Origin: Pontiellaceae bacterium B12219
Lineage (GTDB): Bacteria > Verrucomicrobiota > Kiritimatiellia > Kiritimatiellales > Pontiellaceae
Length of the DNA: 62,600 nt
Reading direction: 5' to 3'
NCBI GenBank assembly: GCA_029432795.1
Contig: JARNMJ010000023.1
Coordinates: 1-62,600 of the forward strand
The position numbers were made by a program, and so were the translations under genes. Shown here one piece after another: positions 4,171-58,879 of the stretch; the stretch's first letter is position 1; each line of letters starts with the position of its first letter. The notes under the pieces were generated by a model that saw nothing but the letters and a program-made list of their open reading frames with translations, had not been told where the DNA came from and searched no databases.

Positions 4171-4246
4171 GACCCCTTCGTCTAGTGGCCTAGGACTCCA
4201 GGTTTTCATCCTGGCAACACGGGTTCGAGTCCCGTAGGGGTCGCCA
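4171..4246 (+). tRNA. tRNA-Glu (TTC)
   Basis: Cloverleaf assembled by eye. Acceptor GACCCCT pairs with AGGGGTC; the anticodon stem CCAGG/CCTGG encloses the loop TTTTCAT, anticodon TTC. The T arm is ACGGGTTCGAGTCCCGT, followed by an encoded CCA. It is identical to the copy 106 bp downstream. Confidence 0.96.
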
Positions 4247-4276
4247 TTTTTAAATGGTGTTTCGGAAAAAACTGAA

Positions 4277-4352
4277 GACCCCTTCGTCTAGTGGCCTAGG
4301 ACTCCAGGTTTTCATCCTGGCAACACGGGTTCGAGTCCCGTAGGGGTCGCCA
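4277..4352 (+). tRNA. tRNA-Glu (TTC), second identical copy
   Basis: Same sequence as the tRNA at 4171, including the encoded CCA. The 7 bases before each copy also match nearly (accgaa/actgaa), so this is a recent tandem duplication. A run of eight T follows shortly after CCA and may end the transcript. Confidence 0.96.
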
Positions 4353-51032: not shown

Positions 51033-51548
51033 ATGAAATTTTTACGTGGTTTTTTCATGGTTCTAGGCGTGGCGGCTCTGACGGCTGCGCTTGTGATTGG
51101 AATTTCTTTTTTGGTGAAACCGAGTGAGGTTCCAATGACGGAAGGGGCCGGGGCCATCAGTCCGGAAATGGTAGAGCAGGCCCGTGTGGTTGCGCAGCGG
51201 GTCGGTCAGCGGATGGCCTGGACCATGGTGCTGATTTCGGCAGTCTTGCAAATTTTTGCCTGGGTGGCAGCCCTCACGAAAACGAAGGCGGTTAAAAATG
51301 CCGGTTTTGATGCCGCGAAAACACTGGAACTGCTCGAAGCGATCGACATCTACTACGACCTCCCGCTCTATTTCGGGCTTTTAGGTTCGGTCGGCAGTTT
51401 CATTGTGATCACCTTCTATCCCGATGCAGGGCTCATGTTTGCGTATGCGTCCACCGCCATGGGCATCGTGGTTTCGGTGATTCTGCGGTTGGGCTATCAC
51501 ACGCCGCTTAAACAGGAACTGTTGATCAGCCAGACCGTAACGAAATAG
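51033..51548 (+). CDS. Four-helix membrane protein, unknown
   Basis: 171 aa, GGAGTGAGG ribosome site. Hydrophobic segments at about 5-28, 62-84, 112-132 and 136-155. No family recognised. The next gene (coiled-coil protein) starts 10 nt later, so the two are one transcript and probably form a complex. Confidence 0.65.
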   Translation: MKFLRGFFMVLGVAALTAALVIGISFLVKPSEVPMTEGAGAISPEMVEQARVVAQRVGQRMAWTMVLISAVLQIFAWVAALTKTKAVKNAGFDAAKTLELLEAIDIYYDLPLYFGLLGSVGSFIVITFYPDAGLMFAYASTAMGIVVSVILRLGYHTPLKQELLISQTVTK

Positions 51549-51558
51549 GGAACCGACG

Positions 51559-53139
51559 ATGCGACGATCAATTTTAGTCGTGATGCTCGACGTCATGGTG
51601 CTCTCTGTATTGGCCCTCACCTCGCGAAATCTGCGGGGAGCCGACTCGAATATTCCGGTTCCGGCGAGCGGGCTTTCCCGTGTGGTGGAAGAAGGGCTTC
51701 GGAATGAGGCGGGCTATAAAAACGAAATAGCCCGGCTGGAAGCGCAGCTTCAGGAATCGTCCGAACTTGCGCGCAAAGCTATTGAGCAGGCGGCGCTGGC
51801 TGATGCCAAGGCGGAGCGCGAACGGGCTGAGAGTGTGGAGGCTCTCGCGAAACTTCGCGAAGCGGAACTGGCGGAAGAGCGTGCAAAATCCCAGGCGCTC
51901 CTTGCCGCACGGGAAGCCGAACTGGTGAATCAGCAGGCCGAAGAGGCCAAAGCGCGTACCCGTGAACTCGAACAACGTGAAATGGAAGCCAAAGCGCGGG
52001 CCGATGCCGCGCATGCCCGGGTTAAACTCGCGGAACAAAAAGCCGCAGAGGCCGAGCGGCTCGCCCGCGAAGCGGAACGGTCGGCCGGCGAACGCGATTC
52101 CGAAATCCTCGCACTGAAAGAAGTTGCCATGCAGGCCCGGGTTGAAAAGCAATTGGCTGAAGAACGTGCTGCAGAGTTATCCTCAACGTTGGCGGATCAG
52201 GCGGCGGAATTACGTGCTGCCAAATCGGCGGAAGCTGTCGCCGCGGCCAAAGCCGAAGTGGCTTTGAGTGAGCGGGAGCGGTTGGAAGTTAAAACGGAGC
52301 TGGTTGCCGAAGAGCTGGTGGAAGCGCGCGTGTCGGTTGCAACGCTGGAAGAGCGTAAAGCGGCCGATGCTGAAAAGCTTGCTCAGCTCGAACGGGAGCA
52401 AAAAGCAGCGGCTGAAGCGCGGAATCAGTCGGTCTGGGTGCGGCGCGATGAAGCGATGCGCCGTCTGATGATCAGCTACACCGAATATGCGGCAAACGGA
52501 AGAGCGTACCGCACCGACAAACAGCTGGCGATGCCGCTGGTGAATATTGGAGGATTCAATGTGGTTCCGGCGGAATTTGAAGCGCTGGGTTTGAAGAAAT
52601 CCTTTTTCGGGGGGCTGTCCGACCGGATTGCCGATGTTCGCGGCATTGCCGCTCCGATGGTGGGCGAGGCAAAGGCCGACTCGCTGCGGGCGCTCATTGT
52701 TCCGGCAAGCGAACCGCAGGTGTGCCTGGCCCATGTGATCGGGCCCACCGAGGGTGCGCTGGAACCGATCACCATGCAGGGGCTGAAAGACCGTCGCCTG
52801 CGCACGGCCATGCTTTTCAGCCCTTCCGATGTGAATTCGTACGGTCTCGTTGAAGTGGTTCCAATGATTGGAAAAGATTATCTGAGTGTTCGTGTGTTGA
52901 GCAAAGCCAAACCCAAAGTCGGCGATTACCTGCTGACCGATCGCGGCGAGTTTGTCGGGGTGATGGTTAAATCGGATATTTGCTACGTGTTACCCGGGCA
53001 ATTGAGTTCAACGCCTAAACCGGTCATTATTCCGTTGCGGGCATACGGGAAACGGGATGCCTATTTGAGCGATTTTGTGGACAACCTCAATCTTGCGCGC
53101 GACCTGTTTAAACAAGGCCGGAATTCGCGCGGATTTTAG
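51559..53139 (+). CDS. Membrane-anchored Ala/Glu coiled-coil protein with degenerate protease-like end
   Basis: 526 aa. Short N-terminal hydrophobic segment (5-24), then about 260 residues of Ala/Glu/Lys/Arg heptads (such as REAELAEERAKSQALLAARE) forming a long coiled coil, then a beta-rich C-terminal domain (about 315-526). That domain has IVPASEPQVCLAHVIGPTEG and GDYLLTDRGEFVGVMVKSD, which recalls the GSPLLNSRGEVVGI strand of trypsin-like proteases, but no triad is visible. Unknown function. Exact palindrome at 52859-52873. A short terminator follows. Confidence 0.65.
   Translation: MRRSILVVMLDVMVLSVLALTSRNLRGADSNIPVPASGLSRVVEEGLRNEAGYKNEIARLEAQLQESSELARKAIEQAALADAKAERERAESVEALAKLREAELAEERAKSQALLAAREAELVNQQAEEAKARTRELEQREMEAKARADAAHARVKLAEQKAAEAERLAREAERSAGERDSEILALKEVAMQARVEKQLAEERAAELSSTLADQAAELRAAKSAEAVAAAKAEVALSERERLEVKTELVAEELVEARVSVATLEERKAADAEKLAQLEREQKAAAEARNQSVWVRRDEAMRRLMISYTEYAANGRAYRTDKQLAMPLVNIGGFNVVPAEFEALGLKKSFFGGLSDRIADVRGIAAPMVGEAKADSLRALIVPASEPQVCLAHVIGPTEGALEPITMQGLKDRRLRTAMLFSPSDVNSYGLVEVVPMIGKDYLSVRVLSKAKPKVGDYLLTDRGEFVGVMVKSDICYVLPGQLSSTPKPVIIPLRAYGKRDAYLSDFVDNLNLARDLFKQGRNSRGF
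52859..52873. repeat. TTCCAANNNTTGGAA palindrome (inside the coiled-coil gene)
   Basis: Exact copy, central TGA, coding Val-Pro-Met-Ile-Gly. Confidence 0.95.
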
Positions 53140-55377: not shown

Positions 55378-55550
55378 AATTTATCTCCGTTAAATACCTA
55401 CGTTTAAAAGGAAGGGTACTGATTAACAAAGGAGCTCTTTTTGCTCAACGCTTTCCATGCATTATAATTTTAAAGCGAATGAGTAGTAGCCGTTATTCTA
55501 TGGCGTGCTACCTTTTTTCCATTCCTTGGAAAACGAACAGGAGGTGGGGA

Positions 55551-57065
55551 ATGAGTGAAGCGATGGATTTTAAACCGCCGAACGTGAAGCTGAATATTCC
55601 GCTGCTCACGTCGATCCCGGTCTTGATTATCGGTGGCGTGATTGCAGTGGTGGTCTTCTTTTGGTTTTTCTGCCGGATTGAACCGGGGGCTGGAGAGATT
55701 GCGGTGCTGATCCGCAAGACGGGCGACAATTTGCCGGCTGGCCAGGTGATTGCGTTGGAGCCGGGGCAGAAGGGTATTCAATTGGAGGTGCTTTCCGAAG
55801 GGCGCTATTTCCGGAACCCCTATACCTGGAGCTGGAAGAAGCATCGGATTCTTGATGTGCCCGCCGGCAAGCTGGGTGTGATGACCCGCCTCTATGGAAC
55901 CGACCTTGCTCCCAGCAGCATCATTGCGAGCGATGGCGAAAAGGGCATTGTGGAGGAAATTCTTCGGCCCGGTAAATACCGCATTAATCCCTATGCCTAT
56001 CACGTGGCTCTTTTTGACGCGATCAACATCAGTCCCGGTCATGTGGGTGTGGTGACCGCGCTCACGGGGCGGGATGTGCTGAACTATCCGCTGCCTCCTG
56101 AAAAGCGGAATACGTTCATGGTGGATGCGGGCCTGAAAGGGGTGGACGGTATGCTGCTTGATCCCGGAACACATTATCTGAATCCCTATATTTTTAACAC
56201 CGTAGAGGTTAATCTCCAGAGTCAGCGGTTTGAGATGTCCGGCAAGGATGTCATTAATTTCCTGACGCTGGACGGGTTCACCGTGACGGTCGAGGGCACC
56301 ATTGAGTTTGGTATCCAGCGGAACGAAGCGGCGTATCTGACGCATCGCGTCGGCGATATGGATGATATTATCAAAAAGATGATTCTGCCCCGGGCGCGTG
56401 GATTCAGCCGTATTGAAGGAAGCAAATATCCCGCTGTAAATTTCATTGTGGGAGAAACCCGCCAGAAGTTTCAGAATGAACTGGAAAACCATCTGCGCAC
56501 CAAATCCATGGGCTGGGGGGTTGATATTAAATCGGTGCTGGTTCGCAAGATTATCGTGCCGGATGAAATTGCCAGTATTAACCGTGACCGCGAGCTTGCC
56601 GTGCAGGATGCCGCAAAATACGAACAGCAGATTGTTCAGGCCCAATCAAAAGCCGAGCTGACTAAGCAGGAAATGCTGGCCATTCAGAACCGGGAAAAAG
56701 TGGAGGCCGATACCAAGCGTATCCGTGCCGTGATTGATGCCGAGCAGGACCAAAGCGTTCGGCTTATTTCCGCGCAGAAAGAGTTGGATGTGGCTCAGGT
56801 GGAATACGAAGCCGCACTGTTTCAGGCGGAGGCGATTCTGTTGACGGCGGATGGGCAGAAGGATGCCATCACCGCGCAGAATGTGGCCGAAGCTTCGGTG
56901 CTGCAAAACCGGGTGACGGCCCTCGGGACGGGCGAAAATTATGCCCGTTACACGCTTTATGAACGCCTGGCCCCGAATATTCTGTCGGTGCTGAGTTCAG
57001 ATTCCGAAGGAGGCATCGGCAGCATTTTCAGCACGTATGCTCCGGTTGAAGGAGGTGCAGAATGA
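55551..57065 (+). CDS. SPFH/Band 7 protein 1
   Basis: 504 aa from the ATG at 55551 (GGAGGTGGGGA just upstream); a longer in-frame start is unlikely. One N-terminal membrane segment (about 20-45). Before the SPFH domain (about 235-390) come three related units of about 65-70 residues, each with a GxxGVxT start, a PGxxKGI-like turn and an LxPGxYxxNPY end (for instance EEILRPGKYRINPYAYHV). A coiled-coil end follows (about 395-480). Overlaps SPFH protein 2 (ATGA). Probably a flotillin-like membrane-scaffold pair. Upstream palindrome variant TTCCATTCCTTGGAA at 55517-55531. Confidence 0.82.
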   Translation: MSEAMDFKPPNVKLNIPLLTSIPVLIIGGVIAVVVFFWFFCRIEPGAGEIAVLIRKTGDNLPAGQVIALEPGQKGIQLEVLSEGRYFRNPYTWSWKKHRILDVPAGKLGVMTRLYGTDLAPSSIIASDGEKGIVEEILRPGKYRINPYAYHVALFDAINISPGHVGVVTALTGRDVLNYPLPPEKRNTFMVDAGLKGVDGMLLDPGTHYLNPYIFNTVEVNLQSQRFEMSGKDVINFLTLDGFTVTVEGTIEFGIQRNEAAYLTHRVGDMDDIIKKMILPRARGFSRIEGSKYPAVNFIVGETRQKFQNELENHLRTKSMGWGVDIKSVLVRKIIVPDEIASINRDRELAVQDAAKYEQQIVQAQSKAELTKQEMLAIQNREKVEADTKRIRAVIDAEQDQSVRLISAQKELDVAQVEYEAALFQAEAILLTADGQKDAITAQNVAEASVLQNRVTALGTGENYARYTLYERLAPNILSVLSSDSEGGIGSIFSTYAPVEGGAE

Positions 57066-58774
57066 AACATTCATCAAAATCGATAGTTGGTCTGGTGATA
57101 AGTGCGGTCGTTATTGGCGGCGGACTTTATGTGATGTGGATGTGGGGTTTTTGTCGTTTTTATGTCGGCCCCAACGAAATGGCGATCATCACGGCGAAAA
57201 ACGGAGCGCCGCTCGATCCGGGGCAGATTCTTGCCCGTGAAGGCCAGAAGGGTATTCGGGAAGAACCGCTGGGAGAAGGCCGGCATTTCCTGAGCCCGAT
57301 TTTCTATGAACGCCGTATCGAACCGATCATCATGATTGAACCGGGCAAAGTCGGCGTTGTGACGTCCAAAGTGGGAGCCAAACTGCCGACCGGGGAATTC
57401 ATTGCCGAACGGGGCCAGAAAGGGATCTGGCGTGAGGTGCTCGGGCCGGGTAAATACCGGATGAATCCGTATGGCTATAACATCGAAATTATCGACGCCA
57501 TCAGTATTCCGATCGGTTATGCCGGGGTAATCACGTCGCGTTCCGGGGAGCAGGCACCGGATGGGCAGTTTGCCAACGATGAGCAGAAAGGCGTCCGCAA
57601 GGATGTGCTGCAGCCGGGGCTCTACTATGTGAATCCGCAGGCCTATAAAGTGGATGTGCTTGAAGTTGGTATTAATCAGGTTTCATTGCTCGGGCAGGAG
57701 GGCAGCAAGGTCGTCACGAAAGCGCGTCAGTTGGGCCAGAGTCAGGCGCTGAATGTGCTGCAGAATAATATGCTCGAAAAGCAGGAAGCCAAACGGGCGG
57801 ACTATTTCAGCAAGCGGTCGTCCTCTTTTGCTCCTCCGTCACGTCGGGGTCAGCAGGTGGATTTTGCAGCAGGAAAGAAACTGAACGATATTGCACCGGC
57901 CTCGTTGGAAGAAGGGGAAATGAATCTGATGGAATTGGTCAGCTTCCCGTCGCGCGACGGGTTTCAGATCAGTCTGGATATGACACTGGAATTTGAGCTG
58001 AATCCGGGGGACATCGCCGGCATCTATCGTCGTTATGGTGATCTTCCGGCGGTGGTCGATAAAATCATCATGCCGCAGATTACGTCCATATCCCGAAATA
58101 AAGGATCTGAATATCGCGCCAAGGATTTCATTGTGGGCGAGGGCCGTGAAAAATTTCAGGAAGATCTGACTGAATCGCTTGAACTGGAGCTCAGCGAAAA
58201 GGATATCCGGGTGTATAATGCGCTGATTCGCCATGTGGAAGTGCCGAATGAAATTCGGGTTCCGATTCAGCAGGCCAGTATTGCGGTCGAGCAGGATCTG
58301 ACGAATAAAGAGCGGCAGAATACCGCACGGAAAGAAGCGCAGCTCAATACCGAGCTGTCGCTGATTGCGCAGCGCGGGGAGCAGGTGATGCAGGAAACGG
58401 AAAAGCTGAAGGCGGAAATTGCGGCGGACCTCGCCAAACAGGTTGCCACGATTCAGGCGGAAACCCTGAAGAAAGAAGCTGAGGTTCGCAGTGCCACCGC
58501 CGCAATCAATGCGGACAAAGTGCGTGTGATCGGCGAGGCCGATGCTTCCGCGCTTGAAAAAGTTGAAGGCGAACGGGCCAAAGGGCTGCAGCTGAAAACG
58601 GCCGCCTTTGGCGATCCGGCGGCCTATGCCAAATGGATCTTTGCTGAAAATCTGAATCCGCGGGTGAAACTGAATATTATTCATGCCGGTGAAGGCACAC
58701 TCTGGACCGATCTCGAAAAAACGGGTTTTGCAGAACTCGGCGGTGCCAAGCAACTGAAAGCCGGACAGAGGTAG
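57062..58774 (+). CDS. SPFH/Band 7 protein 2
   Basis: 570 aa, paralogue of protein 1, GGAGG ribosome site. Membrane segment at about 12-30, the same repeated units (KVGVVTSKVGAKLPTGEF then QKGIWREVLGPGKYRMNPYG), a spacer insert with KQEAKRADYFSKRSSSF (about 240-275), the SPFH domain (about 300-400) and a Glu/Ala/Lys coiled coil. It probably forms a hetero-oligomer with protein 1. Function at the membrane not known. A two-way terminator follows at 58848. Confidence 0.82.
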   Translation: MKHSSKSIVGLVISAVVIGGGLYVMWMWGFCRFYVGPNEMAIITAKNGAPLDPGQILAREGQKGIREEPLGEGRHFLSPIFYERRIEPIIMIEPGKVGVVTSKVGAKLPTGEFIAERGQKGIWREVLGPGKYRMNPYGYNIEIIDAISIPIGYAGVITSRSGEQAPDGQFANDEQKGVRKDVLQPGLYYVNPQAYKVDVLEVGINQVSLLGQEGSKVVTKARQLGQSQALNVLQNNMLEKQEAKRADYFSKRSSSFAPPSRRGQQVDFAAGKKLNDIAPASLEEGEMNLMELVSFPSRDGFQISLDMTLEFELNPGDIAGIYRRYGDLPAVVDKIIMPQITSISRNKGSEYRAKDFIVGEGREKFQEDLTESLELELSEKDIRVYNALIRHVEVPNEIRVPIQQASIAVEQDLTNKERQNTARKEAQLNTELSLIAQRGEQVMQETEKLKAEIAADLAKQVATIQAETLKKEAEVRSATAAINADKVRVIGEADASALEKVEGERAKGLQLKTAAFGDPAAYAKWIFAENLNPRVKLNIIHAGEGTLWTDLEKTGFAELGGAKQLKAGQR

Positions 58775-58847: not shown

Positions 58848-58879
58848 AAGATACCCCCGGGATATGTCGGGGGTATCTG
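58848..58879. terminator. Two-way terminator between SPFH 2 and ilvA
   Basis: Stem GATACCCCCG, loop GGATATGT, stem CGGGGGTATC, with A7 before it. It is a strong terminator for ilvA on the minus strand (seven T follow) and may serve the SPFH operon. Confidence 0.88.

What the first reader, a model, noticed from the sequence alone, without database searches (positions are those of the whole stretch)
55551..58774. Paired SPFH proteins with a triple repeated module before the SPFH domain
Both proteins carry three units of about 65-70 residues (GxxGVVT...KGI..E.LxPGxYxxNPY) between the membrane helix and the SPFH domain. Ordinary flotillins and stomatins lack this. The pair overlaps (ATGA), so they are likely made in equal amounts as a large hetero-oligomer.
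Basis: partly seen in the sequence, partly recalled or inferred. Interest (0 to 1): 0.55.

Follow-up and report, generated by a model that had tools for sequence, protein, structure and literature searches.

The report
Bacterial membrane cages with vault-like walls
Two overlapping bacterial genes encode membrane-anchored cage proteins whose wall module is repeated three times, much as in the large eukaryotic "vault" particle, and relatives with up to seven modules suggest the wall lengthens by copying its middle piece.

Summary
The repeats are real. P0001 (504 aa) and P0002 (570 aa) each carry three units of 55-62 residues; all 15 unit pairs beat 1000 of 1000 shuffles. In AlphaFold models each unit is a three-stranded sheet, and the best Foldseek matches of both proteins are major vault protein (MVP): repeats, SPFH shoulder, long helix, in that order. 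Sequence profiles do not link the units to MVP. The pair is conserved in Kiritimatiellia and has moved to Desulfobulbales; relatives have 3, 4, 5 or 7 units. Units sort by position, and every interior unit of the longer proteins is of the 'middle' type. Best explanation: a membrane-anchored A/B half-cage with a raised, vault-like wall whose height is set by middle-module copies. Assembly, topology and cargo are inferred. A 2026 paper calls such repeats unique to the vault. New variant of a known kind.

The parts
55539..55546 (+). ribosome-binding site of gene A (AGGAGGTG)
   Evidence: read in the sequence, six bases between AGGAGG and ATG
55551..57065 (+). gene A (P0001, 504 aa): membrane helix, three SPFH1-like units, SPFH2, long helix
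55602..55670 (+). gene A membrane helix (aa 18-40)
   Evidence: AlphaFold helix 18-40; most hydrophobic stretch
55677..55856 (+). gene A unit 1 ('first' type)
55857..56027 (+). gene A unit 2 ('middle' type)
56028..56213 (+). gene A unit 3 ('last' type) = SPFH1 half of the Band_7 domain
56214..56561 (+). gene A SPFH2 half (aa 222-337)
   Evidence: Band_7 160-366; model strands and helices
56562..56924 (+). gene A long helical region (aa 338-458), low confidence near 387-399
57050..57057 (+). ribosome-binding site of gene B (AGGAGGTG)
   Evidence: read in the sequence, same spacing as gene A
57062..57065 (+). ATGA stop/start overlap of A and B
   Evidence: -4 overlap in 33 of 41 pair loci
57062..58774 (+). 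gene B (P0002, 570 aa): same architecture plus insert
57074..57154 (+). gene B membrane helix (aa 5-31)
   Evidence: AlphaFold helix 5-31
57161..57334 (+). gene B unit 1 ('first' type)
57335..57505 (+). gene B unit 2 ('middle' type)
57506..57670 (+). gene B unit 3 ('last' type) = SPFH1 half of the Band_7 domain
57671..57925 (+). gene B-specific insert between unit 3 and SPFH2 (aa 204-288)
   Evidence: low pLDDT 203-231 and 244-290; in 13 of 13 B rows and 0 of 12 A rows of alignment A1
57926..58240 (+). gene B SPFH2 half (aa 289-393)
58247..58588 (+). gene B long helix (aa 396-509), low confidence at its C-terminal end

Best explanation
The two genes make the A and B subunits of a membrane-anchored SPFH half-cage. 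Each chain has an N-terminal membrane helix, a stack of three SPFH1-type three-stranded modules forming a wall, the SPFH2 module, and a long helix that closes the dome. Canonical SPFH cages have one wall module; here two more raise the SPFH2 ring and the dome further from the membrane, as nine repeats do in half a vault. The wall is polar: a 'first' module faces the membrane, a 'last' module is fused to SPFH2, and interchangeable 'middle' modules set the height (one in this pair; two, three or five in relatives). A and B probably alternate in one ring and fence off a patch of inner membrane under a tall chamber, more likely on the periplasmic side. Shown: repeats, their place, predicted fold, structural resemblance to MVP, module types, conservation of the pair. 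Inferred: ring assembly, A/B alternation, topology, corralling function, chamber height.
For: Unit 3 coincides with the start of Band_7 in both proteins. AlphaFold models show three strands per unit, then SPFH2 and a long helix. Foldseek ranks MVP first for both (E 5.6e-11 and 4.8e-11). In VIA-align rows for P0001, 17 of 18 full-length canonical SPFH entries align only from residue 155-157 (unit 3 on), while 10 of 10 full-length MVP entries align from residue 10-42. MVP fragments R1-R7, which lack an SPFH domain, match units 1-3 (3gnf Z 8.9, 3.9 A, 137 residues; 3gf5_A Z 9.7, 4.9 A, 149 residues; Foldseek 3gf5_B E 1.0e-4). Units cluster by position: 5 label changes against a shuffled mean of 37.5. 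Profiles trained on three-unit proteins label 26 of 26 units of five longer proteins first / middle... / last, and 40 of 40 interior units of 14 further longer proteins as middle. Pair and overlap are conserved. No recurrent partner gene except Pgm in close relatives, which fits a self-sufficient two-gene complex.
Against: No oligomer was modelled. Overall model confidence is moderate (pLDDT 73.8 and 66.2, pTM 0.49 and 0.34). The tool warns that Z below about 13 for repeats may reflect a common arrangement. Whole-chain superpositions have very large rmsd. Some relatives are single genes (L045; L091-L094), so an A/B pair is not needed for the architecture. Topology signals are weak in the window's own proteins. 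There is no functional evidence.
Confidence: 0.68

Rival explanations
1. The extra units do not lengthen the cage wall; they are binding modules (for lipid, peptidoglycan or a partner protein) hanging from a cage of ordinary height.
For: No assembly was modelled; unit sequences are divergent outside the glycine and L-x-P-G-x-Y positions. That SPFH proteins can carry added domains is recalled knowledge.
Against: The units are of the SPFH1 type, stacked in line with the real SPFH1, and match consecutive MVP wall repeats in order. Longer proteins add only middle units and keep the end units, as expected of an in-line stack with two special ends.
Confidence: 0.17
2. A and B each form homo-oligomeric cages, or the ratio varies, and the overlap only reflects co-transcription.
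For: Single-gene relatives with the same architecture exist (L045; L091-L094).
Against: Pair kept in order with a short overlap in Kiritimatiellia and after transfer to Desulfobulbales; identical ribosome-binding sites; known two-gene SPFH complexes alternate (HflK/C, prohibitin, erlin, flotillin; PMC12624060 section 12).
Confidence: 0.12
3. An ordinary SPFH pair of the HflK/C type: a regulator of an FtsH-like protease, with the repeats a neutral elaboration.
For: Two adjacent genes, membrane helix, periplasmic orientation weakly favoured.
Against: No partner gene recurs next to the pair in 28 loci compared. The triple architecture is retained across three phyla and unit counts change only in the middle, which suggests selection on the wall. 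Separate one-unit SPFH proteins of about 309-514 aa exist in near relatives.
Confidence: 0.1

Closest known systems
Major vault protein (MVP), the shell of the eukaryotic vault
   Same: Order of parts: stacked three-stranded repeats, SPFH shoulder, long helix; best Foldseek match of both models; MVP residues 323-707 align in order with P0001 42-397, Z 11.1, rmsd 6.7, 296 residues (9mxj).
   Different: Has an N-terminal membrane helix; three units, not nine; two different subunits; no sequence similarity found to MVP repeats.
HflK/HflC (Hinderhofer SPFH3a/b)
   Same: Adjacent gene pair, membrane helix, SPFH domain, long helix.
   Different: Two extra wall units per subunit; no recurrent partner gene seen.
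Flotillin, stomatin, prohibitin, erlin, QmcA
   Same: SPFH1-SPFH2-coiled-coil fold; unit 3 to helix aligns.
   Different: Together with HflK/C they align only from unit 3 onward (17 of 18 full-length entries).
SPFH11a/b of Hinderhofer 2009 (PMC2636767)
   Same: A rare pair always adjacent in one operon, reported in Chloroflexi, Acidobacteria, Planctomycetes and Deltaproteobacteria.
   Different: SPFH11b is said to lack the coiled coil; here both subunits have a long helix. The passages read mention no repeats. The supplement with the sequences could not be read, so identity was not tested.
Bacterial MVP homologues in Planctomycetota (L100, L101, L103-L105)
   Same: MVP_shoulder domain and, in the three real MVPs scanned, an MVP repeat domain.
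   Different: The unit profile does not match them.

Membership tests
SPFH / Band_7 superfamily | Band_7 (PF01145) match above the gathering score | tested here: met
   82.8 and 66.5 bits against 23.6
SPFH / Band_7 superfamily | SPFH1-SPFH2 fold followed by a long helix | tested here: met
   models and PDB matches
SPFH / Band_7 superfamily | assembly into a domed ring or cage | not testable with these tools
   only single chains could be predicted
HflK/C | one SPFH1 and one SPFH2 module per subunit | tested here: not met
   three SPFH1-type units per subunit
HflK/C | complex with FtsH protease | not testable with these tools
   absence of a recurrent neighbour neither shows nor excludes it
Stomatin / flotillin type with NfeD partner | NfeD-like gene next to the SPFH gene | tested here: inconclusive
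   no neighbour cluster other than SPFH recurs in more than 4 of 28 loci, but neighbours were clustered, not each annotated
Major vault protein | MVP_shoulder or Vault Pfam domain | tested here: not met
   only Band_7 passes its cut-off in the pair and in five relatives with 3, 4 or 7 units
Major vault protein | N-terminal three-stranded repeats leading in line to an SPFH shoulder and a cap helix | tested here: met
   Foldseek and VIA alignments; predicted models only
Major vault protein | repeat sequence related to MVP repeats | tested here: inconclusive
   hhalign unit profile against bacterial MVPs P 0.092; no MVP match in PDB sequences
Major vault protein | soluble, without a membrane helix | tested here: not met
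   N-terminal hydrophobic helix in both proteins
SPFH11a/b (Hinderhofer 2009) | match to the published subgroup profiles | not tested
   profiles are in supplementary files that could not be opened

The most novel reading that the evidence does not exclude
Vault walls are stacked SPFH1 modules. These bacterial membrane half-vaults, with 3, 4, 5 or 7 modules and growth by copying of the middle module, preserve the intermediate steps between one-module SPFH cages and the nine-repeat MVP; the vault would then be an SPFH cage that lengthened its wall, lost its membrane helix and closed by pairing two halves.
Probability: 0.33. Interest if true: 0.85.

Novelty: new variant of a known kind. Interest (0 to 1): 0.62.

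Why it matters
[quoted passage not shown] Here are membrane-anchored bacterial SPFH proteins with vault-like stacked walls whose number of modules varies. They give a natural height series (1, 3, 4, 5, 7 modules), make the origin of the vault wall testable, and offer a two-gene bacterial system in which to ask what a tall membrane cage is for.

Tried and rejected
Sequence link to MVP: Pfam scans, unit profile against PDB sequences (best weak match prohibitin-1 SPFH1, E 0.64), PF01505 in 145 Verrucomicrobiota genomes (0 of 145 over the cut-off, listed hits look like chance), hhalign of the whole pair (probability 14%, SPFH2/helix only) and of the unit (P 0.092), and unit HMM on five bacterial MVPs. 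None supports homology by sequence, so the MVP claim stays structural. The unit profile against one canonical SPFH protein was also not significant by hhalign (P 0.078, aligned at the expected place), so the identity of unit and SPFH1 rests on Band_7 covering unit 3, the relation of units 1 and 2 to unit 3 and the fold.

A first MVP alignment (A4) included L102, which was the wrong frame (Pfam found nothing in it); it was dropped and A5 made from the other five.

Membership in SPFH11a/b could not be tested. Conserved neighbours as a clue to function: none recurs; Pgm lies next to the pair only in close relatives. The promoter and terminator scan gave nothing above shuffles. Subunit number: the published regression on helix length (y = 0.1782x + 10.22; PMC12624060) gives about 30-32 subunits for helices of 114-121 residues, but the helix of P0001 breaks near 392 in the model and confidence there is low, so this is only a guess. 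Alignment A6 was made and not used. The unit tree has few columns (58) and many open forks; the held-out profile test carries the weight. In one search two of 14 longer proteins had a last unit labelled middle (L162, L175) and two a first unit labelled middle (L184, L188); L165/L173 is split over two ORFs. Several of these proteins are about 92% identical, so the 40 interior units are not 40 independent events. In one search, 14 loci were kept out of the training set by hand (L056, L061, L067, L068, L070-L072, L074, L075, L082, L089, L090, L095, L099), mostly duplicates, partial units or odd cases.

Full report
WHAT IS THERE. Two genes on the + strand, 55551-57065 (A, P0001, 504 aa) and 57062-58774 (B, P0002, 570 aa), overlap by ATGA. 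Both have the ribosome-binding site AGGAGGTG with six bases between AGGAGG and ATG. Upstream lies a divergent phosphoglucomutase-like gene and downstream a converging threonine-dehydratase-like gene (names recalled from reading the translations; not scanned).

THE REPEATS. Units are A1 43-102, A2 103-159, A3 160-221 and B1 34-91, B2 92-148, B3 149-203, of 55-62 residues. All 15 pairs score above every one of 1000 shuffles. Pfam Band_7 starts at 160 in A and 148 in B, at profile positions 3 and 2, so the third unit is the N-terminal SPFH1 half of the SPFH domain and two units are extra. As a control, a unit profile finds exactly three units in each of the 87 hit ORFs among 1034 ORFs of loci L001-L045 (these include copies of the window and repeated genomes). 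At 28 of 29 Band_7 loci from the window's genome and near relatives, only the three that belong to this family (L144, L145, L156) give three units and no other ORF gives more than one, at i-E 0.008 or weaker (L129 gave no ORF across its midpoint).

FOLD. AlphaFold models (26-row alignments of A and B orthologues and L045) have mean pLDDT 73.8 for A and 66.2 for B. In A each unit shows three main strands (49-55, 75-81, 93-99; 107-113, 132-138, 150-156; 164-170, 197-203, 215-221), followed by SPFH2 and a long helical region; B is alike with a low-confidence insert at about 203-290. Foldseek against the PDB ranks MVP first for both: A, ranks 1-4, best E 5.6e-11; B, ranks 1-8, best E 4.8e-11. Prohibitin, erlin, HflK/C, stomatin and flotillin follow closely. 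The difference lies in coverage: in the VIA-align table for A, 17 of 18 full-length canonical SPFH entries begin at model residue 155-157 and one (9oh9) at 121, whereas 10 of 10 full-length MVP entries begin at 10-42. MVP fragments with repeats R1-R7 only also match the three units: 3gnf with A (Z 8.9, rmsd 3.9, 137 residues, model 42-223), and 3gf5_A and 3gnf with B (Z 9.7, rmsd 4.9, 149 residues; Z 8.6, rmsd 4.4, 154 residues); Foldseek gives 3gf5_B E 1.0e-4 for B. MVP has nine N-terminal three-stranded repeat domains, an SPFH shoulder and a cap helix (PMC13347060, introduction passages). These Z values are moderate and the tool warns about repeats.

NO SEQUENCE LINK TO MVP. PDB sequence search with the unit profile gave only prohibitin-1 SPFH1 (E 0.64) and chance hits. 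Bacterial MVPs occur in 6 of 294 Planctomycetota genomes by MVP_shoulder; three of these genomes (G307, G323, G376) also have the tandem-unit proteins. Profile comparison with five of these MVPs was not significant.

DISTRIBUTION. The window's genome has one pair and one other Band_7 protein. In 240 genomes of the phylum, 77 have a match and 52 have one at E <= 1e-100. In 13 loci from genome contigs, relatives are Pontiellaceae and other Kiritimatiellales, Desulfobulbales-type bacteria at 75-80% identity, and one Phycisphaerales single-gene relative, L045, also with three units. In a tree of 39 A proteins the Desulfobulbales-type sequences fall in a fully supported 14-row group with Pontiellales, deep inside Kiritimatiellia: horizontal transfer, most simply from Kiritimatiellia. 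In Planctomycetota 29 of 149 genomes and in the phylum of L041 9 of 148 match the family profile at E <= 1e-30. The -4 overlap is present in 33 of 41 pair loci, -1 in 2, and 6 could not be judged because the longest ORF of B starts further upstream; several species are counted in both locus sets.

UNIT NUMBER AND WALL GROWTH. Relatives have 3 units in most cases, but also 4, 5 and 7. In a tree of 80 units, first, middle and last units separate with 5 changes of label (least possible 2; shuffled mean 37.5, 0 of 200 as low), though support is low because there are only 58 columns. So the triple arrangement appears older than the split of A from B and than the spread over phyla. Profiles of the three types, trained on three-unit proteins only, label all 26 units of five longer proteins first / middle ... 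/ last. In a further search with the seven-unit protein (12 of 395 and 34 of 392 genomes), 14 new longer proteins have 40 of 40 interior units of the middle type, 12 of 14 first units and 12 of 14 last units as expected. The wall therefore seems to lengthen by copying the middle module while both end modules stay.

CONTEXT. In 28 loci compared, no gene other than the SPFH genes recurs in more than four. The phosphoglucomutase gene is a neighbour only in close relatives. Neighbours were clustered and not each annotated, so an NfeD or protease partner is not formally excluded.

MECHANISM. Known SPFH complexes are domed rings, the two-gene ones alternating (PMC12624060, section 12 read). With three stacked wall modules the SPFH2 ring and dome should stand further from the membrane than in HflK/C, enclosing a taller chamber over a fenced membrane patch. 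Charges next to the membrane helix weakly favour an extracytoplasmic cage; this is clearest in the Desulfobulbales relatives (+5 to +7 before the helix of A). Ring formation, alternation, side and cargo are inferences.

NOVELTY. [quoted passage not shown] abstract and passages read). The 2009 classification of prokaryotic SPFH proteins (PMC2636767; abstract, sections 9-11 and passages read) mentions no such repeats in what I read; its SPFH11a/b pair remains a possible, untested earlier record of this family. Searches for a description of tandem SPFH1 repeats in bacteria found none within an open-access library that lacks most subscription papers.

Noticed in passing
L100, L101, L103-L105 (Planctomycetota): Bacterial major vault protein homologues with MVP_shoulder domains in 6 of 294 Planctomycetota genomes sampled, some in genomes that also carry tandem-unit SPFH proteins.
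   Followed up: partly
L039-L042, L044: A and B proteins 75-80% identical to the window's in Desulfobulbales-type bacteria (Thermodesulfobacteriota), with the A proteins of L039-L042 nested inside Kiritimatiellia in the tree: horizontal transfer between phyla.
   Followed up: partly
L091:1348-3906 and L092:457-2973: Seven-unit SPFH proteins of 838-852 aa, several of whose middle units are very alike, suggesting recent internal duplication.
   Followed up: partly
window 57671-57925: An insert found only in B, between unit 3 and SPFH2, predicted with low confidence and conserved in parts across B orthologues.
   Followed up: no
window 55668-55676 and 57149-57157: A conserved F-C-R motif where both membrane helices leave the membrane; it could be a membrane-interface or disulfide site.
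   Followed up: no
window 51033-53139: A small membrane protein followed by a 526-aa coiled-coil protein; neither has a Pfam match over a cut-off.
   Followed up: no
window 58849-58878: Terminator-like hairpin on the minus strand just past the converging threonine-dehydratase-like gene.
   Followed up: no
window 4171-4352: Two tRNA-Glu genes with the same anticodon (ttc) in tandem.
   Followed up: no
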